Source: Lachnospiraceae bacterium AC2029 (GTDB lineage: Bacteria > Bacillota > Clostridia > Lachnospirales > Lachnospiraceae). Taken from it: a DNA stretch of 64,000 nt. Location: NCBI GenBank assembly GCA_000703065.1, contig JNLK01000001.1:1302001-1366000 (forward strand). The letters are read 5' to 3'. The position numbers were made by a program, and so were the translations under genes. Shown one piece after another: positions 23,412 to 28,962 of the stretch (positions are counted from its first letter, which is position 1; every line of letters begins with the position of its first letter). The notes beneath the pieces are model-generated. The model was not told the origin of the DNA, made no database searches, and worked only from the letters and a program-made list of their open reading frames with translations.

Positions 23412-23441
23412 CATCTGAAAAGGCGTAGCCTCCTCTCTCTC

Positions 23442-23485
23442 AACGAGCCGCAGAATAGCACAAATGGGGCATTCTGCGGCTCGTT
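23442..23485. terminator. 15-bp perfect hairpin after the wall-binding operon
   Basis: AACGAGCCGCAGAAT is matched exactly by ATTCTGCGGCTCGTT across a 14-base loop. It lies 40 bases beyond the last gene of the agrD operon. There is no T-run on the minus strand, so termination may depend on the stem or on Rho. Confidence 0.55.
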
Positions 23486-23525
23486 ATAATTTGAGATCAA
23501 ATACATGATTCCCAAGGTTTTATGA

Positions 23526-24461
23526 TTACTGCACCAAATATCCTTCCGCATTAAAGGTGTACAGAACTCCGTTGATCTTCATCTTTTGATTCTTTGCATA
23601 CCAGCCGGATGTATCTCCAAACCACCAGCCGTTTTTGCTATGCGTCCAACTCCCCTTCGGCTTATACTTCCAGGAACCATCAGCACTTACCCAATATCCG
23701 CCACACCATTCATTTGAGGCAAGCGTACCGTTTTTTCTCAGGTAGTACCACGTATCGTCCACCTTCGTCCAGCCACAGCACATTTTTCCCAACTTGCTCT
23801 TGTTTTCACTCAGGTAGTACCAGCTCTTCTTCCCATTATCAGCTAAATACTTCCACCCGGTCTGCATAATACCGTCCTTATTCAGATAGTACCAATTACG
23901 TCCATCCTTCATCCATCCTCTGGCCAGTTTTCCATTCTTTTTAATGAAGTAAGACTTTGTAAAAGAATAAGTCCATCCCCGAATTAAGGTTCCGTCTGGA
24001 TACTTGTCGACGATGGTTACATCAAATTCATCCACTACAGCTCCGTCCAAAGACGCTCTGACCCGCATATTCCCGGCCATTTCGTATGGAGTTGCAAAAA
24101 AAGCATTGCCATTTTTATCCACATGATGAGCTTTCACTATAGATCCATTCGGCAAAACAGCATCCCAGGAAGCATTCCTGATCACTTTTTCGTCAGCCTG
24201 AAGGCTGTCCGATTTATGATAGGCGGGTTTGCCCTTTCCCCCATCTCTTTCAGCAAGCGCCACAATGAACTCACAGCCCCAGCCGACTCTAAGAATTCCC
24301 TGATCTCGAAAATCACCGATGTCAAAAGCCGGTGAATATACAACCATAGATGCAAAGATTCTGTATTGCTTTTCTTCTTGAAGTTGACTTGCTGAAGAAG
24401 GAGTCTCCATCATGAACAGGAAAATACATGCACACAATACGCTTATCACTCGCTTTGCCAT
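23526..24461 (-). CDS. Secreted protein with cell-wall-binding repeats
   Basis: 311 residues with a signal peptide (VISVLCACIFLFMM, cleavage near SSASQ). Residues 25-150 form a unique domain containing WDAVLPNGSIVKAH and MRVRASLDGAVVDEF. The C-terminal half is made of about seven choline/glucan-binding-type repeats (GRNWYYLNKDGIMQTGW, DTWYYLRKNG and similar) that tether proteins to wall polysaccharide. The start is 10 bases after the caspase-like peptidase gene with GAGGGGTG upstream, so it is the third gene of the agrD operon. It could be a target or helper of that peptidase. More AT-rich than housekeeping neighbours. Confidence 0.8.
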   Translation of the reverse strand: MAKRVISVLCACIFLFMMETPSSASQLQEEKQYRIFASMVVYSPAFDIGDFRDQGILRVGWGCEFIVALAERDGGKGKPAYHKSDSLQADEKVIRNASWDAVLPNGSIVKAHHVDKNGNAFFATPYEMAGNMRVRASLDGAVVDEFDVTIVDKYPDGTLIRGWTYSFTKSYFIKKNGKLARGWMKDGRNWYYLNKDGIMQTGWKYLADNGKKSWYYLSENKSKLGKMCCGWTKVDDTWYYLRKNGTLASNEWCGGYWVSADGSWKYKPKGSWTHSKNGWWFGDTSGWYAKNQKMKINGVLYTFNAEGYLVQ

Positions 24462-24471
24462 AGTCCACCCC

Positions 24472-25872
24472 TCATTCTAATTTTGCAAAAATGGTAAAGA
24501 GACTATTCTGTGGATATACAACAACATGCTGACCACTAACGTGATTGTAGGAATACGTGTACAGCTCATTCAATGAAACAATCGAGTTTTGGTCAGTATC
24601 TGCGTACATCTGCACATATGAATTAGTGTTTATATCCCAACCTCCACCAAGCATCCAATATTTATTTGCAAGTCCGACATTTGAAATCGAACCCGGTGGT
24701 GTATAACCTGCGCTTAGTTCCGTTTTGGAAGAAGAACAAAGAACCAAATACTTATCATTCACAAGTTCACCAGAACGGTTTTCTCCAGTAAATGAAGATA
24801 AAAAGTTAGTTTCAAAGCAATCGTTTTCACCCCTGTTAATAATCGTGCCGGCATAACAAGTATTTAAAAAGAGAACAACTTTCCCTTCAATCTGATCCAG
24901 TCTATTACGAAGCATCTGCCCATTAACTGACGGGTTTTGACAAAAGAGTAATTCACCTGTTGATAAGCCATGACAAGTGATACTCAAATATGTCACATCA
25001 CTTTCTTCTGTATTCTGGCTTATGTTATCAATCATATCACAAAAAGCCGAGTAGGTAATAGTTGATCTCGTCTCGATCTGCTCAAACTGTCCCCCTTCAC
25101 AAAATGACATATCCGATAAACAGTTCTCCCATCCCATCAACTCTATATCACTTGGAAGGTAGGCGTTCGATATTATTATTGCTCTTCGTGTTGTTTCCTT
25201 GTATTGCCCGTTCGATTTAAAATAGTATGTATACCCCTGAATATTACACCACCCAGTTTGCATTATCCCATTTGAATTAAAGAAATACCAATGATTCTCG
25301 TAGGAAAGCCAACCAATCTTCATTTTTCCATTTGAATTGAAATAGTACCAATTACTAATTCCATTGTCCGATAGATACTGCCATCCGACCAACATTATAC
25401 CATTTGCGTTAAAATAATACCAGTCCTGGGCCCCGCTGACCGTAATCTTTTTCCAGCCGATTACCATCTGGCCATAGTTGGATGCGCTTGCTTTGGGTTC
25501 AAAATAATACCAATGGTTCTGATACTCTAACCACCCTGTATGCATATAACCTGTTGAAGAGTCAAAGTAATACCACTTTCCTCCAATCTTTTTCCAACCA
25601 ATCACATAACTGCCATTCTCATAATATCTCCATTTTCCGTTGCTTTCCTGATGCCATCCACTGATTCTAACCCCATCATCCTCTGAATCATTACCATTCA
25701 GAAGCGACCCTGTTCCTTCATAGAACCCTTCTTTCATCTCCACTTCGTCTGATTGCACATCCGATTCCTCTGTATCGTCATCCACGATTTCTGCCGCATA
25801 AGTGTCCATCGTAGTTATTCCACAAAGAGTGATTGCCGCTGCAACTAACGCAACATGAATTCTTTTCATCAT
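24472..25872 (-). CDS. Secreted caspase-like cysteine peptidase with cell-wall-binding repeats
   Basis: 466 residues. Signal peptide (about 1-28, HVALVAAAITLCGITT), acidic linker, then about seven GW/WYYF wall-binding repeats (about 70-225). Residues 228-466 match clan CD (caspase/C14-like) peptidases: strand RRAIIISNAY, YLSITCHG with the catalytic His301, KVVLFLNTCYAG with the nucleophile Cys339, and the later YLVLCSSSKTELS strand. Near the end DTDQNSIVSLNEL looks like an EF-hand calcium loop. Clan CD enzymes cut after Asp, Arg, Lys or Asn; the specificity here is unknown. The ATG overlaps the agrD stop by 4 bases (ATGA), with AGGGAGG inside agrD, so the two are translationally coupled. Confidence 0.8.
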   Translation of the reverse strand: MMKRIHVALVAAAITLCGITTMDTYAAEIVDDDTEESDVQSDEVEMKEGFYEGTGSLLNGNDSEDDGVRISGWHQESNGKWRYYENGSYVIGWKKIGGKWYYFDSSTGYMHTGWLEYQNHWYYFEPKASASNYGQMVIGWKKITVSGAQDWYYFNANGIMLVGWQYLSDNGISNWYYFNSNGKMKIGWLSYENHWYFFNSNGIMQTGWCNIQGYTYYFKSNGQYKETTRRAIIISNAYLPSDIELMGWENCLSDMSFCEGGQFEQIETRSTITYSAFCDMIDNISQNTEESDVTYLSITCHGLSTGELLFCQNPSVNGQMLRNRLDQIEGKVVLFLNTCYAGTIINRGENDCFETNFLSSFTGENRSGELVNDKYLVLCSSSKTELSAGYTPPGSISNVGLANKYWMLGGGWDINTNSYVQMYADTDQNSIVSLNELYTYSYNHVSGQHVVVYPQNSLFTIFAKLE

Positions 25873-26057
25873 TTTACCTCCCTCGACCTTATTCTCATTC
25901 TCTTTCTTTTGTTTTTTAATAAAGAGTTCAGATTTTCAGGCTCCTTCGGCTGATACCAACTTGCTCTACATCCCGGAGCAAGTATTGCTGCCATATTCAG
26001 AGCAAACACACATAATACACTTCCTATAGAGAATAACTTCAATTTGAGTCGATCCAT
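25869..26057 (-). CDS. agrD: AgrD-type cyclic-lactone autoinducer precursor
   Basis: 62 residues. The N-terminus is an amphipathic or hydrophobic helix (LKLKLFSIGSVLCVFALNM) that would hold it at the membrane. It is followed by APGCRASW-YQPKEPENL: the ring Cys, four residues, then the Pro/Glu recognition tail cut by AgrB. By analogy with other AgrD peptides the signal would end CRASW with a thiolactone between Cys and Trp. The tail then continues with an unusually basic stretch (KNKRKRMRIRSREVK). ATG at 26057 with GGGGTG upstream; a GTG three codons earlier is possible. It is divergent from agrB and overlaps the peptidase gene. Confidence 0.88.
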   Translation of the reverse strand: MDRLKLKLFSIGSVLCVFALNMAAILAPGCRASWYQPKEPENLNSLLKNKRKRMRIRSREVK

Positions 26058-26132
26058 ATCAATCACCCCTGCCTTATTTTATATTATGCTTGTACCATAT
26101 CACACTTTGCGCCTCAAAAACCAAAATCTGTG

Positions 26133-26198
26133 ATGAGCGTTAAAGATTAACGGATAAGTGTCCCTCACAACGCTCATTCACATTATTTTAACGTTCAT
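26133..26198. promoter_or_regulatory. Back-to-back LytTR (AgrA-type) direct-repeat operators
   Basis: Plus strand: AACGCTCAT (26169-26177) and AACGTTCAT (26190-26198), start-to-start 21 bases, that is 9-bp repeats with a 12-bp spacer. Minus strand: AACGCTCAT (26141-26133) with a weaker GACACTTAT (26162-26154), again 21 bases apart. This is the known geometry of AgrA/LytTR sites, one pair facing each promoter. Three of the boxes extend to AACGYTCATCACAG-like sequence. Confidence 0.75.
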
Positions 26199-26204
26199 CA
26201 CAGG

Positions 26205-26237
26205 TTGAATAATAATCGGGCATAAATAGTGTATACT
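26205..26237 (+). promoter_or_regulatory. Weak, activator-type promoter of agrBAC
   Basis: TTGAAT and TATACT separated by 21 bases, too far for good basal activity; the LytTR repeats end 6 bases upstream of the -35. Over-long spacers are a known trait of AgrA-activated promoters. Confidence 0.5.
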
Positions 26238-26282: not shown

Positions 26283-26876
26283 ATGATTATATCAAATGTA
26301 TGTAGTCACCATATAACGGAAAGCCTTTGCAGAAACGGACTCATCGACCCACAAGACAAGGATTCATATCAATACTGTCTTGATCTCACTTTTGACTTCA
26401 TCATATTTCACAGCAGTTTGCTTCTTATCGGTGCTGCCATCGGGCAGTTTTTTCCAACCTGTTGTTATATACTGACCCTAACGCCCTTAAAGATCATAGC
26501 GGGAGGAGCACATGCAAAAACGCCTCTGATATGCAGCATCATTTCATATGCCTTGTACTTTTGCGTCATCTTTCTTTCGCTGAAGATCTCTATCCCATCA
26601 ATTGTTTCCTTTGGATTGACTCTTTTAATCGCTCCCGGAATATTCCTTCTGACTCCTGTGAATCACCCAAACAAAACATTTGATTTACAAAAGCGCAAGA
26701 GTATGCGACGTGCTTTGTTGATTTATCAGATTATCAGCACTATAATTATTCTGATTCTGTTTATATATGGGCAGGAGCACTACTTATACATTATTCTTCT
26801 GTGTAACCTTATAACCCATATCAATCAGATCATCGGATGCATCCTATACCAAGAGGTGAAACCATATGAAACTTAA
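26283..26876 (+). CDS. agrB: AgrB-type autoinducer-processing membrane endopeptidase
   Basis: 197 residues, mostly hydrophobic with about six membrane segments. AgrB proteins cut the AgrD tail and form the thiolactone. The motif AGGAHAKTPLIC gives His77 and Cys84, the same two residues, at the same numbers, as the catalytic pair of the Staphylococcus aureus enzyme. AGGAG lies upstream of the ATG. The last 11 bases overlap the response-regulator gene. AgrD, its substrate, is encoded on the opposite strand 225 bases away. Confidence 0.9.
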   Translation: MIISNVCSHHITESLCRNGLIDPQDKDSYQYCLDLTFDFIIFHSSLLLIGAAIGQFFPTCCYILTLTPLKIIAGGAHAKTPLICSIISYALYFCVIFLSLKISIPSIVSFGLTLLIAPGIFLLTPVNHPNKTFDLQKRKSMRRALLIYQIISTIIILILFIYGQEHYLYIILLCNLITHINQIIGCILYQEVKPYET

Positions 26877-27600
26877 TGTAGCCATATGTGATGATGACAT
26901 TCATTTTATCCGCGAACTCAGGAATCTGCTAACAACGCTTTCATTTGACATGAATATAGAACTTCAAATAGAAGCATTTTCCGAAGGGAAAGAACTTCTC
27001 TCCACCATTACAGCTTCAGAACGCTTCCCGTATCAGATTCTGTTCATGGATATTGAAATGCCCGAAGAAAACGGAATCGACCTTGCAAAAGTATTATATA
27101 GGCAAATCCCATCAGATTCCTTTCTGGTTTTTATAAGCAGTTATCCTGAATACATGCAGGACAGTTTTTCTGTTCATCCTTTCTCTTATCTCACCAAACC
27201 GATACATATTCAGGATATAAAAAAGGTTTTGGTTGATATCCAGGACCGTTACAATGCAGATCATATTCAGTTGATACTCACGGAGAAGGATGGCTATGAA
27301 GCCATTGTTTTTACAAAAGACGTCATATATATCCAGGTAAAAAACTCCCGCCAGAGAATTACCATGGTTCACACATTGGATAACGAATACATTTATCACG
27401 GATCACTGACCGAACTGGAACAAAAGTTTCCAGACACTATGTTCCGATTGGATCGTAAAACGCTCATCAATCTGTCCTACATCCACTATCTTGATGGCAA
27501 TCAGGTTATTATGACTACGGGAACAGTTCTTTCAATCAGCATCCGAAACAAACGACAGTTACTGCATTTATTGCAAAGAACCCCCTCAAACGCCCGATAA
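26866..27600 (+). CDS. agrA: AgrA-type LytTR response regulator
   Basis: 244 residues. Receiver domain (1-125) with acidic pocket ICDDD, phospho-acceptor Asp62 in LFMDIEMPEENG, FISS and the Lys of YLTKPI. The LytTR DNA-binding domain (about 140-240) contains DVIYIQVKNSR, YHGSLTELEQKFPDTMFRLDRKTLINLSYI. It should bind the direct repeats between agrD and agrB when phosphorylated by the adjacent kinase. GAGGTG lies upstream of the ATG, which is inside the end of agrB, so translation is coupled. Confidence 0.9.
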   Translation: MKLNVAICDDDIHFIRELRNLLTTLSFDMNIELQIEAFSEGKELLSTITASERFPYQILFMDIEMPEENGIDLAKVLYRQIPSDSFLVFISSYPEYMQDSFSVHPFSYLTKPIHIQDIKKVLVDIQDRYNADHIQLILTEKDGYEAIVFTKDVIYIQVKNSRQRITMVHTLDNEYIYHGSLTELEQKFPDTMFRLDRKTLINLSYIHYLDGNQVIMTTGTVLSISIRNKRQLLHLLQRTPSNAR

Positions 27601-27612
27601 AGGAGACATGTA

Positions 27613-28962
27613 ATGGAACTGTTTTTAAATGTTTTTTCATCTCTATTGGATGCATTTATTTTAACCGTTTATCTAATTAATGCACTTGGCAGATTTAAGC
27701 GAGACCGTATAATATGGTATTTACTCTCTCTGACGCTCATCGAAGTGATTCTGTACCTAAATCAACTATGGTCTTCATCTAACCCCGATTCCAGAGTTGT
27801 TTGGGTAGCTGTTGTTATTATCAGTACTCTCACAACCTTCATTGCAACGCTGTTTTTCGAATCGAAGATGCTGACACGTATATTGGCATCAATTATATTC
27901 CAGTTACTATACATCGCGTCTGAAAGCCTGTTCACCTTCCTGATTCTTAGGTTTCAGCCTGACTTATATTATGTCGAAGAAACCAATATGCTCTATGCTA
28001 CTATGTCGTTTGGTTCCGTCATTACCATGCTTTTTCTTATTCTGCTTCTTAGTCTTATTCTAAAGAAAAACCGCATTCGGTACCCTATGCAGTTTCATAT
28101 ACAGTTACTGTGTATCCCTCTTATCACAGTTATAATTCTGTCCCTTCTTCAGGTACATAGTTTCTACGAAACCAAGCACATCAATACATATATTCTTCTT
28201 GTTCTGCTTCTCACCATTATGAATGTGATCAACTACATTCAAATTGAATGGTCCGCCAGATTCTTGAATGACAGACAACAGTTACAAGATATGCAACTTC
28301 TAAACAATTATCAGAGACAAAAATATGAACAGTTAAGTGAGTCATACAGGTCAGGGAGACGTTTCCTGCATGACACAAAGAATCATTTTTTTGTTCTCCA
28401 AAAATATCTGCACAACAAACAATACGACCAACTGGAAGCTTATATCACACATGCCTTCGGAGATCTTGAAAACCTGTACGCAAAGTACAATACCGGCAAT
28501 CTGGTGATTGATTCCTTCATGACCAGTTTTGATCAAATGGCGGAACGAAAGAATATTCGATTCGAAGTTGAGCTGAATATCGACAAGAATCGCATCCCAA
28601 TGGAGGATTATGATTTATGTATTGTTCTGGGGAACATTTTGGACAACGCTCTCCATGCATGTGAATATGCAACTAAGAAAGACAGATTCATTCACATCGT
28701 ATTGGAAACAACGAAAAAAGACCTCTTTGTGATAGAAACCGAAAATACCATGAGCAGTCCTGTCGATAAATCCCCAAAAAGTAATGACCTTGAACATGGT
28801 TATGGACTAAAGAACATAAATCGAACAATAGAGAAGTATCATGGGATTATGGGATATGAAGCTAAAGAATCATTCCATATGCTTATTCGGGTGCCAATTA
28901 CAAACCCCGAGCAACGACTGTTTTCCACCGACCACTCCCCAAAAGCCCAGAACCCCACATGA
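27613..28962 (+). CDS. agrC: AgrC-type sensor histidine kinase (GHKL)
   Basis: 449 residues. About six membrane helices fill residues 1-220, the usual autoinducer-binding part. A dimerisation region with the H-box RRFLHDTKNHFFVLQ follows, then a GHKL ATPase with the N-box CIVLGNILDNALHAC and the G-box HGYGLKNINRTIEKYHG. It would sense the cyclic peptide and phosphorylate the LytTR regulator. AGGAG lies seven bases before the ATG and 12 bases separate it from agrA. A strong hairpin ends the operon. Confidence 0.9.
   Translation: MELFLNVFSSLLDAFILTVYLINALGRFKRDRIIWYLLSLTLIEVILYLNQLWSSSNPDSRVVWVAVVIISTLTTFIATLFFESKMLTRILASIIFQLLYIASESLFTFLILRFQPDLYYVEETNMLYATMSFGSVITMLFLILLLSLILKKNRIRYPMQFHIQLLCIPLITVIILSLLQVHSFYETKHINTYILLVLLLTIMNVINYIQIEWSARFLNDRQQLQDMQLLNNYQRQKYEQLSESYRSGRRFLHDTKNHFFVLQKYLHNKQYDQLEAYITHAFGDLENLYAKYNTGNLVIDSFMTSFDQMAERKNIRFEVELNIDKNRIPMEDYDLCIVLGNILDNALHACEYATKKDRFIHIVLETTKKDLFVIETENTMSSPVDKSPKSNDLEHGYGLKNINRTIEKYHGIMGYEAKESFHMLIRVPITNPEQRLFSTDHSPKAQNPT

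What the first reader, a model, noticed from the sequence alone, without database searches (positions are those of the whole stretch)
23526..26057. Autoinducer precursor AgrD translationally coupled to a wall-bound caspase-like peptidase
agrD, a secreted peptidase with catalytic His301/Cys339 of clan CD plus cell-wall-binding repeats, and a second wall-binding protein form one operon on the strand opposite agrBAC. The agrD stop and the peptidase start overlap as ATGA, and the peptidase ribosome site lies in the agrD coding sequence. Co-production suggests that the peptidase is either the main output of quorum sensing or part of peptide maturation or degradation outside the cell, for example trimming the AgrD leader or very basic tail. 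I do not know of a described agr system with an attached caspase-like enzyme.
Basis: partly seen in the sequence, partly recalled or inferred. Interest (0 to 1): 0.85.

Follow-up and report, generated by a model that had tools for sequence, protein, structure and literature searches.

The report
Quorum-signal operon with caspase-like wall enzyme
A bacterium related to Eubacterium from animal stomachs encodes its quorum-sensing peptide in the same operon as a caspase-like enzyme carrying cell-wall-binding repeats, behind a promoter that looks controlled by the same quorum sensor, so the enzyme is probably the system's built-in output rather than a helper that makes the signal.

Summary
agrD, a secreted protein with wall-binding repeats and a His301/Cys339 domain, and a second wall-repeat protein form a tight minus-strand operon opposite agrB-agrA-agrC. 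The domain is below every Pfam peptidase cut-off; clan CD is suggested by invariant His/Cys (4 of 4 sequences, window included), distant relatives that pass the Pfam caspase cut-off, and a low-confidence model whose best PDB matches are paracaspase and metacaspase. Of four homologous loci in 61 same-genus genomes, three have this arrangement. The intergenic region holds two divergent promoters of one design (9-base boxes 12 apart, 32 bases, TATNNT), seen at four loci and hardly elsewhere in 61 genomes; AgrA is the obvious activator. Best reading: an agr variant co-expressing signal and surface effector, functionally like Fsr with GelE. Maturation is unlikely: 17 of 19 AgrB-bearing genus genomes, two of them with divergent agrD, have no peptidase match, one peptidase sits in a genome without an AgrB match, and the ATGA overlap and long basic AgrD tail are window-only. 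Activity, substrate and regulation are untested. New variant of a known kind.

The parts
25869..26057 (-). agrD, pro-peptide of the cyclic signal; predicted ring C-R-A-S-W(-Y) before QPKEPENL
   Evidence: TIGR04223 21.7 bits, cut-off 19; C-[RK]-x-x-W shared with five other complete divergent AgrDs. Ring boundaries are inferred.
24472..25872 (-). secreted caspase-like peptidase with choline-binding repeats (signal peptide by eye, repeats about residues 70-225, catalytic domain 227-466)
   Evidence: Repeats pass PF19127/PF01473 (extent); His and Cys invariant in 4 of 4 sequences, window included; model and Foldseek; distant relatives pass PF00656
24970..24972 (-). codon of His301 (CHG)
   Evidence: 4 of 4 sequences
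24856..24858 (-). codon of Cys339 (TCYAG)
   Evidence: 4 of 4 sequences
23526..24461 (-). second secreted wall-repeat protein with an N-terminal domain of unknown function
   Evidence: PF19127 38.8 bits; 45-59% identical homologues at the three other peptidase loci; low-confidence model matched choline-repeat proteins in the rows shown
23441..23486 (-). strong hairpin after the operon, possible terminator
   Evidence: fold z-score -5.86; not listed by the terminator scan
26132..26161 (-). AgrA-type box pair ACACTTATC-N12-ACGCTCATC for the agrD operon
26094..26099 (-). -10 TATGGT, 32 nt after the boxes
26170..26199 (+). AgrA-type box pair ACGCTCATT-N12-ACGTTCATC for agrBAC
26232..26237 (+). -10 TATACT, 32 nt after the boxes
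26283..26876 (+). agrB, signal-processing membrane peptidase
   Evidence: PF04647 105.5 bits, cut-off 23
26866..27600 (+). agrA, response regulator with LytTR domain
   Evidence: PF00072 and PF04397 above cut-off
27613..28962 (+). agrC, GHKL sensor kinase
   Evidence: PF14501 68.3 bits, cut-off 22

Best explanation
This is an agr quorum-sensing variant in which the pro-peptide gene sits in its own divergent operon together with surface effectors. AgrB would process AgrD to a cyclic peptide, AgrC would sense it and phosphorylate AgrA, and AgrA would bind two mirrored box pairs, switching on agrBAC to the right and agrD-peptidase-wall protein to the left. Signal and a wall-held caspase-fold cysteine peptidase therefore rise together, and the peptidase is the dedicated local output, acting on proteins at or near the cell surface. 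Shown by sequence: gene content, order, repeats, conserved His/Cys, shared promoter design. Inferred: AgrA binding, proteolysis, wall attachment, substrate.
For: Full agr set. Three of four peptidase loci, in 3 of 61 genus genomes, have agrD-peptidase-wall protein opposite agrB, with peptidase domains 49-53% identical to the window's. Promoter design in both directions at four divergent loci, 8 of 8 with TATNNT at exactly 32 nt. Scan of 61 genomes with up to one mismatch: 10 hits, the 8 perfect ones all in these intergenic regions, reversed control 0; the other two lie just after a regulator/kinase gene pair that looks LytTR-type by eye. In the own genome 10 box-pair sites match with up to 2 mismatches, and only these two without any. 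Clan CD support: the 24 best Foldseek rows are MALT1, metacaspases, caspases and GSU0716; four profile relatives pass PF00656. Agr-adjacent genes are known effectors: CA_C0082, not required for signal production (PMC10301443, passages); [quoted passage not shown]).
Against: No expression or enzyme data. The model is weak (pLDDT 57.7; TM to query 0.28-0.39 in the 24 best rows; from row 25 other folds appear; only 7 matches reach E 0.001), and the domain is below all Pfam cut-offs. Only four homologous loci are known here, two of them in one MAG. G322b lacks this box sequence and its agrD is readable only in two frames; G322a has a short agrB with transposase-like ORFs behind it. G312 keeps the peptidase with no AgrB match and no design hit. 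The pattern was built from the same loci, window included, and a pattern from the relatives alone is not significant without the spacing (12 of 100 shuffles of the window gave two or more matches).
Confidence: 0.66

Rival explanations
1. The peptidase matures the signal: it trims the AgrD leader or tail outside the cell.
For: Same operon as agrD, overlapping stop and start in the window; an extracellular location would fit leader removal.
Against: 17 of 19 AgrB-bearing genus genomes have no peptidase match, among them G310 and G317, which have the divergent agrD; most of the 17 are other agr classes. The long basic tail is window-only. In S. aureus AgrB cleaves the C-terminal tail (PMC10885120, passage).
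Confidence: 0.07
2. The peptidase destroys the signal: it opens the ring after the conserved basic residue (C-[RK]-x-x-W), giving delayed negative feedback or removal of rival peptides.
For: Arg or Lys follows the ring Cys in all six complete divergent AgrDs and in the readable part of a seventh. Basic specificity is common in metacaspases and clostripain (recalled).
Against: The residue is also conserved in G310 and G317, which have no peptidase match, and in G151. Specificity cannot be predicted from a weak model.
Confidence: 0.11
3. The protein is a wall-bound binding protein whose caspase domain is not a working enzyme.
For: Below all Pfam peptidase cut-offs; the second protein of the operon has no recognised enzyme domain.
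Against: His-Gly and Cys-Tyr-[AS]-Gly are invariant in 4 of 4 sequences.
Confidence: 0.08
4. Chance neighbours: in a genome rich in choline-binding repeats, a wall protein landed beside agr.
For: 162 matching stretches for the window protein in the own genome; the gene after agrD differs between loci.
Against: The same three-gene operon recurs at three loci in two genomes. In the own genome the window domain and the CHAT-like domain each match one place, both beside agr; Pfam C14 and CHAT models gave nothing above cut-off, with three other sub-threshold places of 11-14 bits.
Confidence: 0.05

Closest known systems
Fsr system of Enterococcus faecalis with GelE/SprE
   Same: agr-type peptide-lactone system that is the main activator of a secreted protease gene (PMC7028047, passages). 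17 of 49 wound isolates kept gelE but lacked fsrA and had truncated fsrBDC (PMC12994788, passage), which resembles G312 here.
   Different: gelE and sprE are separate transcription units from the propeptide gene and encode metallo- and serine proteases (partly recalled); here the caspase-like wall-repeat protein shares the operon with agrD.
CA_C0082 next to agr in Clostridium acetobutylicum
   Same: agr-adjacent gene controlled by Agr, not needed to make the signal, acts as effector (PMC10301443, passages).
   Different: LanM-like protein 88 bp downstream of agrA.
Staphylococcus agr P2/P3 divergent promoters
   Same: AgrA binds two direct repeats upstream of the P2 and P3 promoters (PMC4227749, passages).
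   Different: There the two units are agrBDCA and RNAIII (PMC8748961, passage); here the second unit carries agrD and protein effectors.
Bacterial Peptidase_C14 (caspase/metacaspase) proteins
   Same: His and Cys at the ends of neighbouring strands in the model; distant relatives pass PF00656. Cell-wall binding was assigned to 14 of 671 surveyed prokaryotic metacaspases (PMC3501461, passages).
   Different: The window domain itself fails the PF00656 cut-off; the words quorum and choline do not occur in that survey's main text.

Membership tests
agr quorum-sensing system | AgrB, AgrD, AgrC and AgrA homologues together | tested here: met
   PF04647 105.5 bits, TIGR04223 21.7, PF14501 68.3, PF04397 51.4, all above cut-off
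agr quorum-sensing system | paired direct repeats upstream of divergent promoters | tested here: met
   9-N12-9-N32-TATNNT on both strands; binding by AgrA not tested
agr quorum-sensing system | agrD next to agrB in one agrBDCA operon | tested here: not met
   agrD is divergent and the plus-strand order is B-A-C; divergent agrD also at three G322 loci, G317, G310 and G151
agr quorum-sensing system | production of a cyclic (thio)lactone peptide | not testable with these tools
   needs mass spectrometry
Clan CD / Peptidase_C14 | match to a curated family model | tested here: not met
   no PF00656 hit; PF01650 (C13) E 0.0043-0.054 in the four sequences, below cut-off
Clan CD / Peptidase_C14 | conserved His-Gly and Cys | tested here: met
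   4 of 4 sequences, window included
Clan CD / Peptidase_C14 | caspase-type fold | tested here: inconclusive
   24 best Foldseek rows are caspase-fold proteins (E 1.4e-4 to 5.8e-3), but pLDDT 57.7 and TM to query 0.28-0.39
Clan CD / Peptidase_C14 | cysteine-dependent proteolysis | not testable with these tools
   needs purified protein
Choline-binding repeat proteins | Choline_bind repeats | tested here: met
   PF19127 94.7 and 38.8 bits, cut-off 27
Choline-binding repeat proteins | attachment to the cell wall | not testable with these tools
   needs fractionation
Fsr/GelE-type arrangement | protease encoded beside, and controlled by, the LytTR regulator | tested here: inconclusive
   adjacency and boxes present; control by AgrA not shown

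The most novel reading that the evidence does not exclude
A self-timed signal operon: quorum sensing makes its peptide and a wall-held caspase-fold protease from one transcript, and the protease then opens the peptide ring after the conserved Arg/Lys, ending the signal around the producing cell. In this genome, wall-repeat proteins with clan-CD-like domains would have been recruited to agr twice (the second carries a CHAT-like domain).
Probability: 0.1. Interest if true: 0.85.

Novelty: new variant of a known kind. Interest (0 to 1): 0.56.

Why it matters
To my knowledge the functions of bacterial caspase-like proteins outside the cell are mostly unknown, and agr systems of gut and rumen anaerobes are little studied. 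Here the signal, the sensor, the promoter design and a candidate single output sit in one small locus, so what quorum sensing is for in such a bacterium becomes testable with a few deletions. In the own genome no other perfect match to the box pair was found.

Tried and rejected
Direct family assignment of the peptidase domain failed (Pfam, NCBIfam, PDB sequences); only a profile, distant relatives and a fold comparison linked it to clan CD. The four best distant C14-like proteins (G454, G027, G238, G244) are not beside agr in the stretches read; G092 and G034 were weaker hits and not informative. A model of the second wall protein matched choline-repeat proteins in the rows shown, so its N-terminal domain stays unknown. 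A direct repeat upstream of the CHAT-like gene at the second agr locus was not found upstream of that locus's agrD, so I do not count it. The terminator scan did not list the hairpin after the operon. Considered and rejected: a conserved role for the ATGA overlap and the long basic AgrD tail, both window-only.

Rows dropped before counts: of 31 AgrB rows in the genus, G337:C6 (below cut-off) was not fetched and G348:C298 was fetched but not inspected. AgrD genes were found by a loose regular expression, so 'no agrD seen' is not absence. Part's output was cut; one search reprinted nine of those loci.

Full report
OBSERVATION. The minus-strand genes are agrD (25869-26057), a 466-aa secreted protein (24472-25872) and a 311-aa secreted protein (23526-24461); agrB, agrA and agrC follow on the plus strand from 26283. 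AgrB, AgrC, AgrA and the wall repeats pass Pfam cut-offs, and AgrD passes TIGR04223. His301 and Cys339 are as stated. The first two genes overlap in ATGATG with a ribosome site inside agrD; genes two and three are 10 nt apart. A strong hairpin follows the third gene, although the terminator scan did not list it.

WHAT THE ENZYME DOMAIN IS. The domain alone gives only a sub-threshold C13 match (E 0.054). Four things bear on clan CD. First, the four sequences (window, two of G322, one of G312 cut by a contig end) share His-Gly and Cys-Tyr-[AS]-Gly without exception. Second, an AlphaFold2 model from these four puts His near the end of one strand and Cys near the end of a later one, and the 24 best Foldseek rows are MALT1, metacaspases, caspases and GSU0716, with other folds from row 25 on; the model is weak overall (pLDDT 57.7, best 10-residue block 89; TM to query 0.28-0.39 in those rows). 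Third, the profile finds matches in 7 of 397 family genomes including the own one, and the four best other proteins pass the PF00656 caspase cut-off (39-72 bits, cut-off 21.4). Fourth, against a simple C14 label, no PF00656 match in the own genome is above cut-off and the window domain is not among the two weak ones. None of the four distant proteins lies beside agr in the stretches read, so the agr link belongs to this small subgroup.

IS THE LINK REAL. In the genus, 3 of 61 genomes hold the peptidase: the window genome, G322 (two loci) and G312 (split over two contig ends). In G322 both loci have peptidase and second wall protein opposite agrB, with agrD between, though one agrD is readable only in two frames. 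G312 has no AgrB match; its peptidase follows a UvrD-like gene that is 87% identical over 715 residues to the one beyond agrC in G317. This suggests that agr was lost there and the effector kept, but both are draft genomes. AgrB occurs in 19 of 61 genus genomes; 17 of these 19 have no peptidase match. Of 28 AgrB-bearing loci examined in the genus, six have a divergent agrD (window, G322 three times, G317, G310), plus one (G151) of 20 read from other genera; in another of those 20 (G087) an agrD-like ORF lies on the opposite strand but downstream of agrB. What follows the divergent agrD differs: peptidase in three, a choline-repeat protein in G310, an ORF that looks like an insertion sequence by eye in G322d, tandem related small proteins in G317, the one tested having no Pfam match, a 170-aa protein in G151. 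The effector slot is variable. The contigs of G322d, G317 and G151 end close by; G310 and G317 have no peptidase match anywhere.

REGULATION. The 216-nt intergenic region has two mirrored box pairs, ACRYTYATY-N12-ACGYTCATC, one per direction. A like pair is found in both directions at G322a, G322d and G317, and in 8 of 8 cases TATNNT starts exactly 32 nt after the second box; TATNNT occurs at 36 of 1862 positions of these four regions, both strands, the eight sites included. The spacing was noticed on these same sequences, so that frequency is a description rather than a blind test. A pattern made from the relatives alone, with up to three mismatches, finds exactly the two window sites in 64 kb (1 and 2 mismatches), but 12 of 100 shuffles gave two or more matches, so the box pair alone is not significant. 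With the spacing included, a scan of all 61 genomes with up to one mismatch gave 10 hits: eight perfect, all in divergent agrB/agrD regions, and two with one mismatch (G342, G351), each just after a regulator/kinase gene pair that looks LytTR-type by eye and before an ABC-transporter gene in G351, or a shortened equivalent in G342; the reversed control gave none. The pattern includes the window's own variants. G322b and G310 lack the box sequence, and their AgrA C-termini lack the segment S[IV]R[NC][KR][KR] that the other four share, which fits co-change of regulator and site.

MECHANISM. Best reading (0.66): AgrA activates both directions, so signal and wall-held peptidase are produced together and the peptidase is the local output. 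Shown: gene content, synteny, conserved catalytic pair, promoter design. Inferred: AgrA binding, proteolysis, wall attachment, substrate. Maturation is unlikely because the peptidase is missing from two genomes with the divergent arrangement (G310, G317), the long basic tail is absent from the other five complete AgrDs and the overlap is window-only (gaps 113 and 15 nt in G322a and G322b). Signal destruction remains open (0.11): the residue after the ring Cys is Arg or Lys in all seven divergent AgrDs seen, though also where there is no peptidase match.

COMPARISON. Functionally closest is Fsr with GelE/SprE (PMC7028047, PMC12994788, passages) and, as an agr-adjacent effector, CA_C0082 (PMC10301443, passages). 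AgrA repeats at two divergent promoters are known from Staphylococcus (PMC4227749, PMC8748961, passages). I saw no paper describing an agr locus with a caspase-like enzyme or agrD in a divergent effector operon; the searches were made, seen as capped listings of an open-access library, plus passages of seven papers.

SECOND AGR LOCUS. The same genome has another agrB with co-directional agrD-agrB-agrC-agrA and, divergent beyond a small regulator, a 600-aa choline-repeat protein that aligns to residues 3-210 of the window peptidase at 52% identity but whose C-terminal domain is CHAT-like (E 0.003, 17.5 bits, below cut-off 24). That domain was found in 1 of 61 genus genomes. So both agr loci of this genome sit beside wall-repeat proteins with a GHG or CHG motif followed by a Cys motif; whether this is selection or local copying is open.

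Noticed in passing
L011:5648-9925 (own genome 1615647-1619924): Second agr locus with a divergent choline-repeat protein carrying a CHAT-like domain, whose N-terminal part resembles the window peptidase, plus a further choline-repeat protein and a small regulator; its agrD scores 17.3 bits, under the TIGR04223 cut-off of 19.
   Followed up: partly
L011:8322-8530: Direct repeat ACGCTTGAA-N12-ACGCTTGTG upstream of the CHAT-like gene, with TATTCT at a similar distance; not found upstream of that locus's agrD.
   Followed up: partly
L018:8233-11690: In G322a the agrB frame is short and two transposase-like ORFs lie between agrB and agrA, so the peptidase operon is there beside a probably broken agr.
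   Followed up: no
L020 and L021 (contig ends of G312): Peptidase and second wall protein without any AgrB match in the genome, next to the UvrD-like gene that flanks agr in G317: looks like agr loss with the effector kept.
   Followed up: partly
L160, L161: The same promoter design with one mismatch just after a regulator/kinase gene pair (LytTR-type by eye) in two genomes without an AgrB match, before an ABC-transporter gene in one of them.
   Followed up: partly
L146 (G087): An agrD-like ORF on the strand opposite agrB but downstream of it, a further agr arrangement.
   Followed up: no
own genome G000:C1: 162 stretches match the window protein, nearly all in its choline-binding repeats: a large wall-repeat repertoire.
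   Followed up: no
L018:7760-7900: Strong hairpin (z -6.14) between agrD and the peptidase gene in G322a, without a T-run; could be attenuation, processing or a small mobile repeat.
   Followed up: no
L065:9566-10489: Tandem related small proteins follow agrD in G317 (the one tested has no Pfam match), possibly an alternative effector.
   Followed up: no
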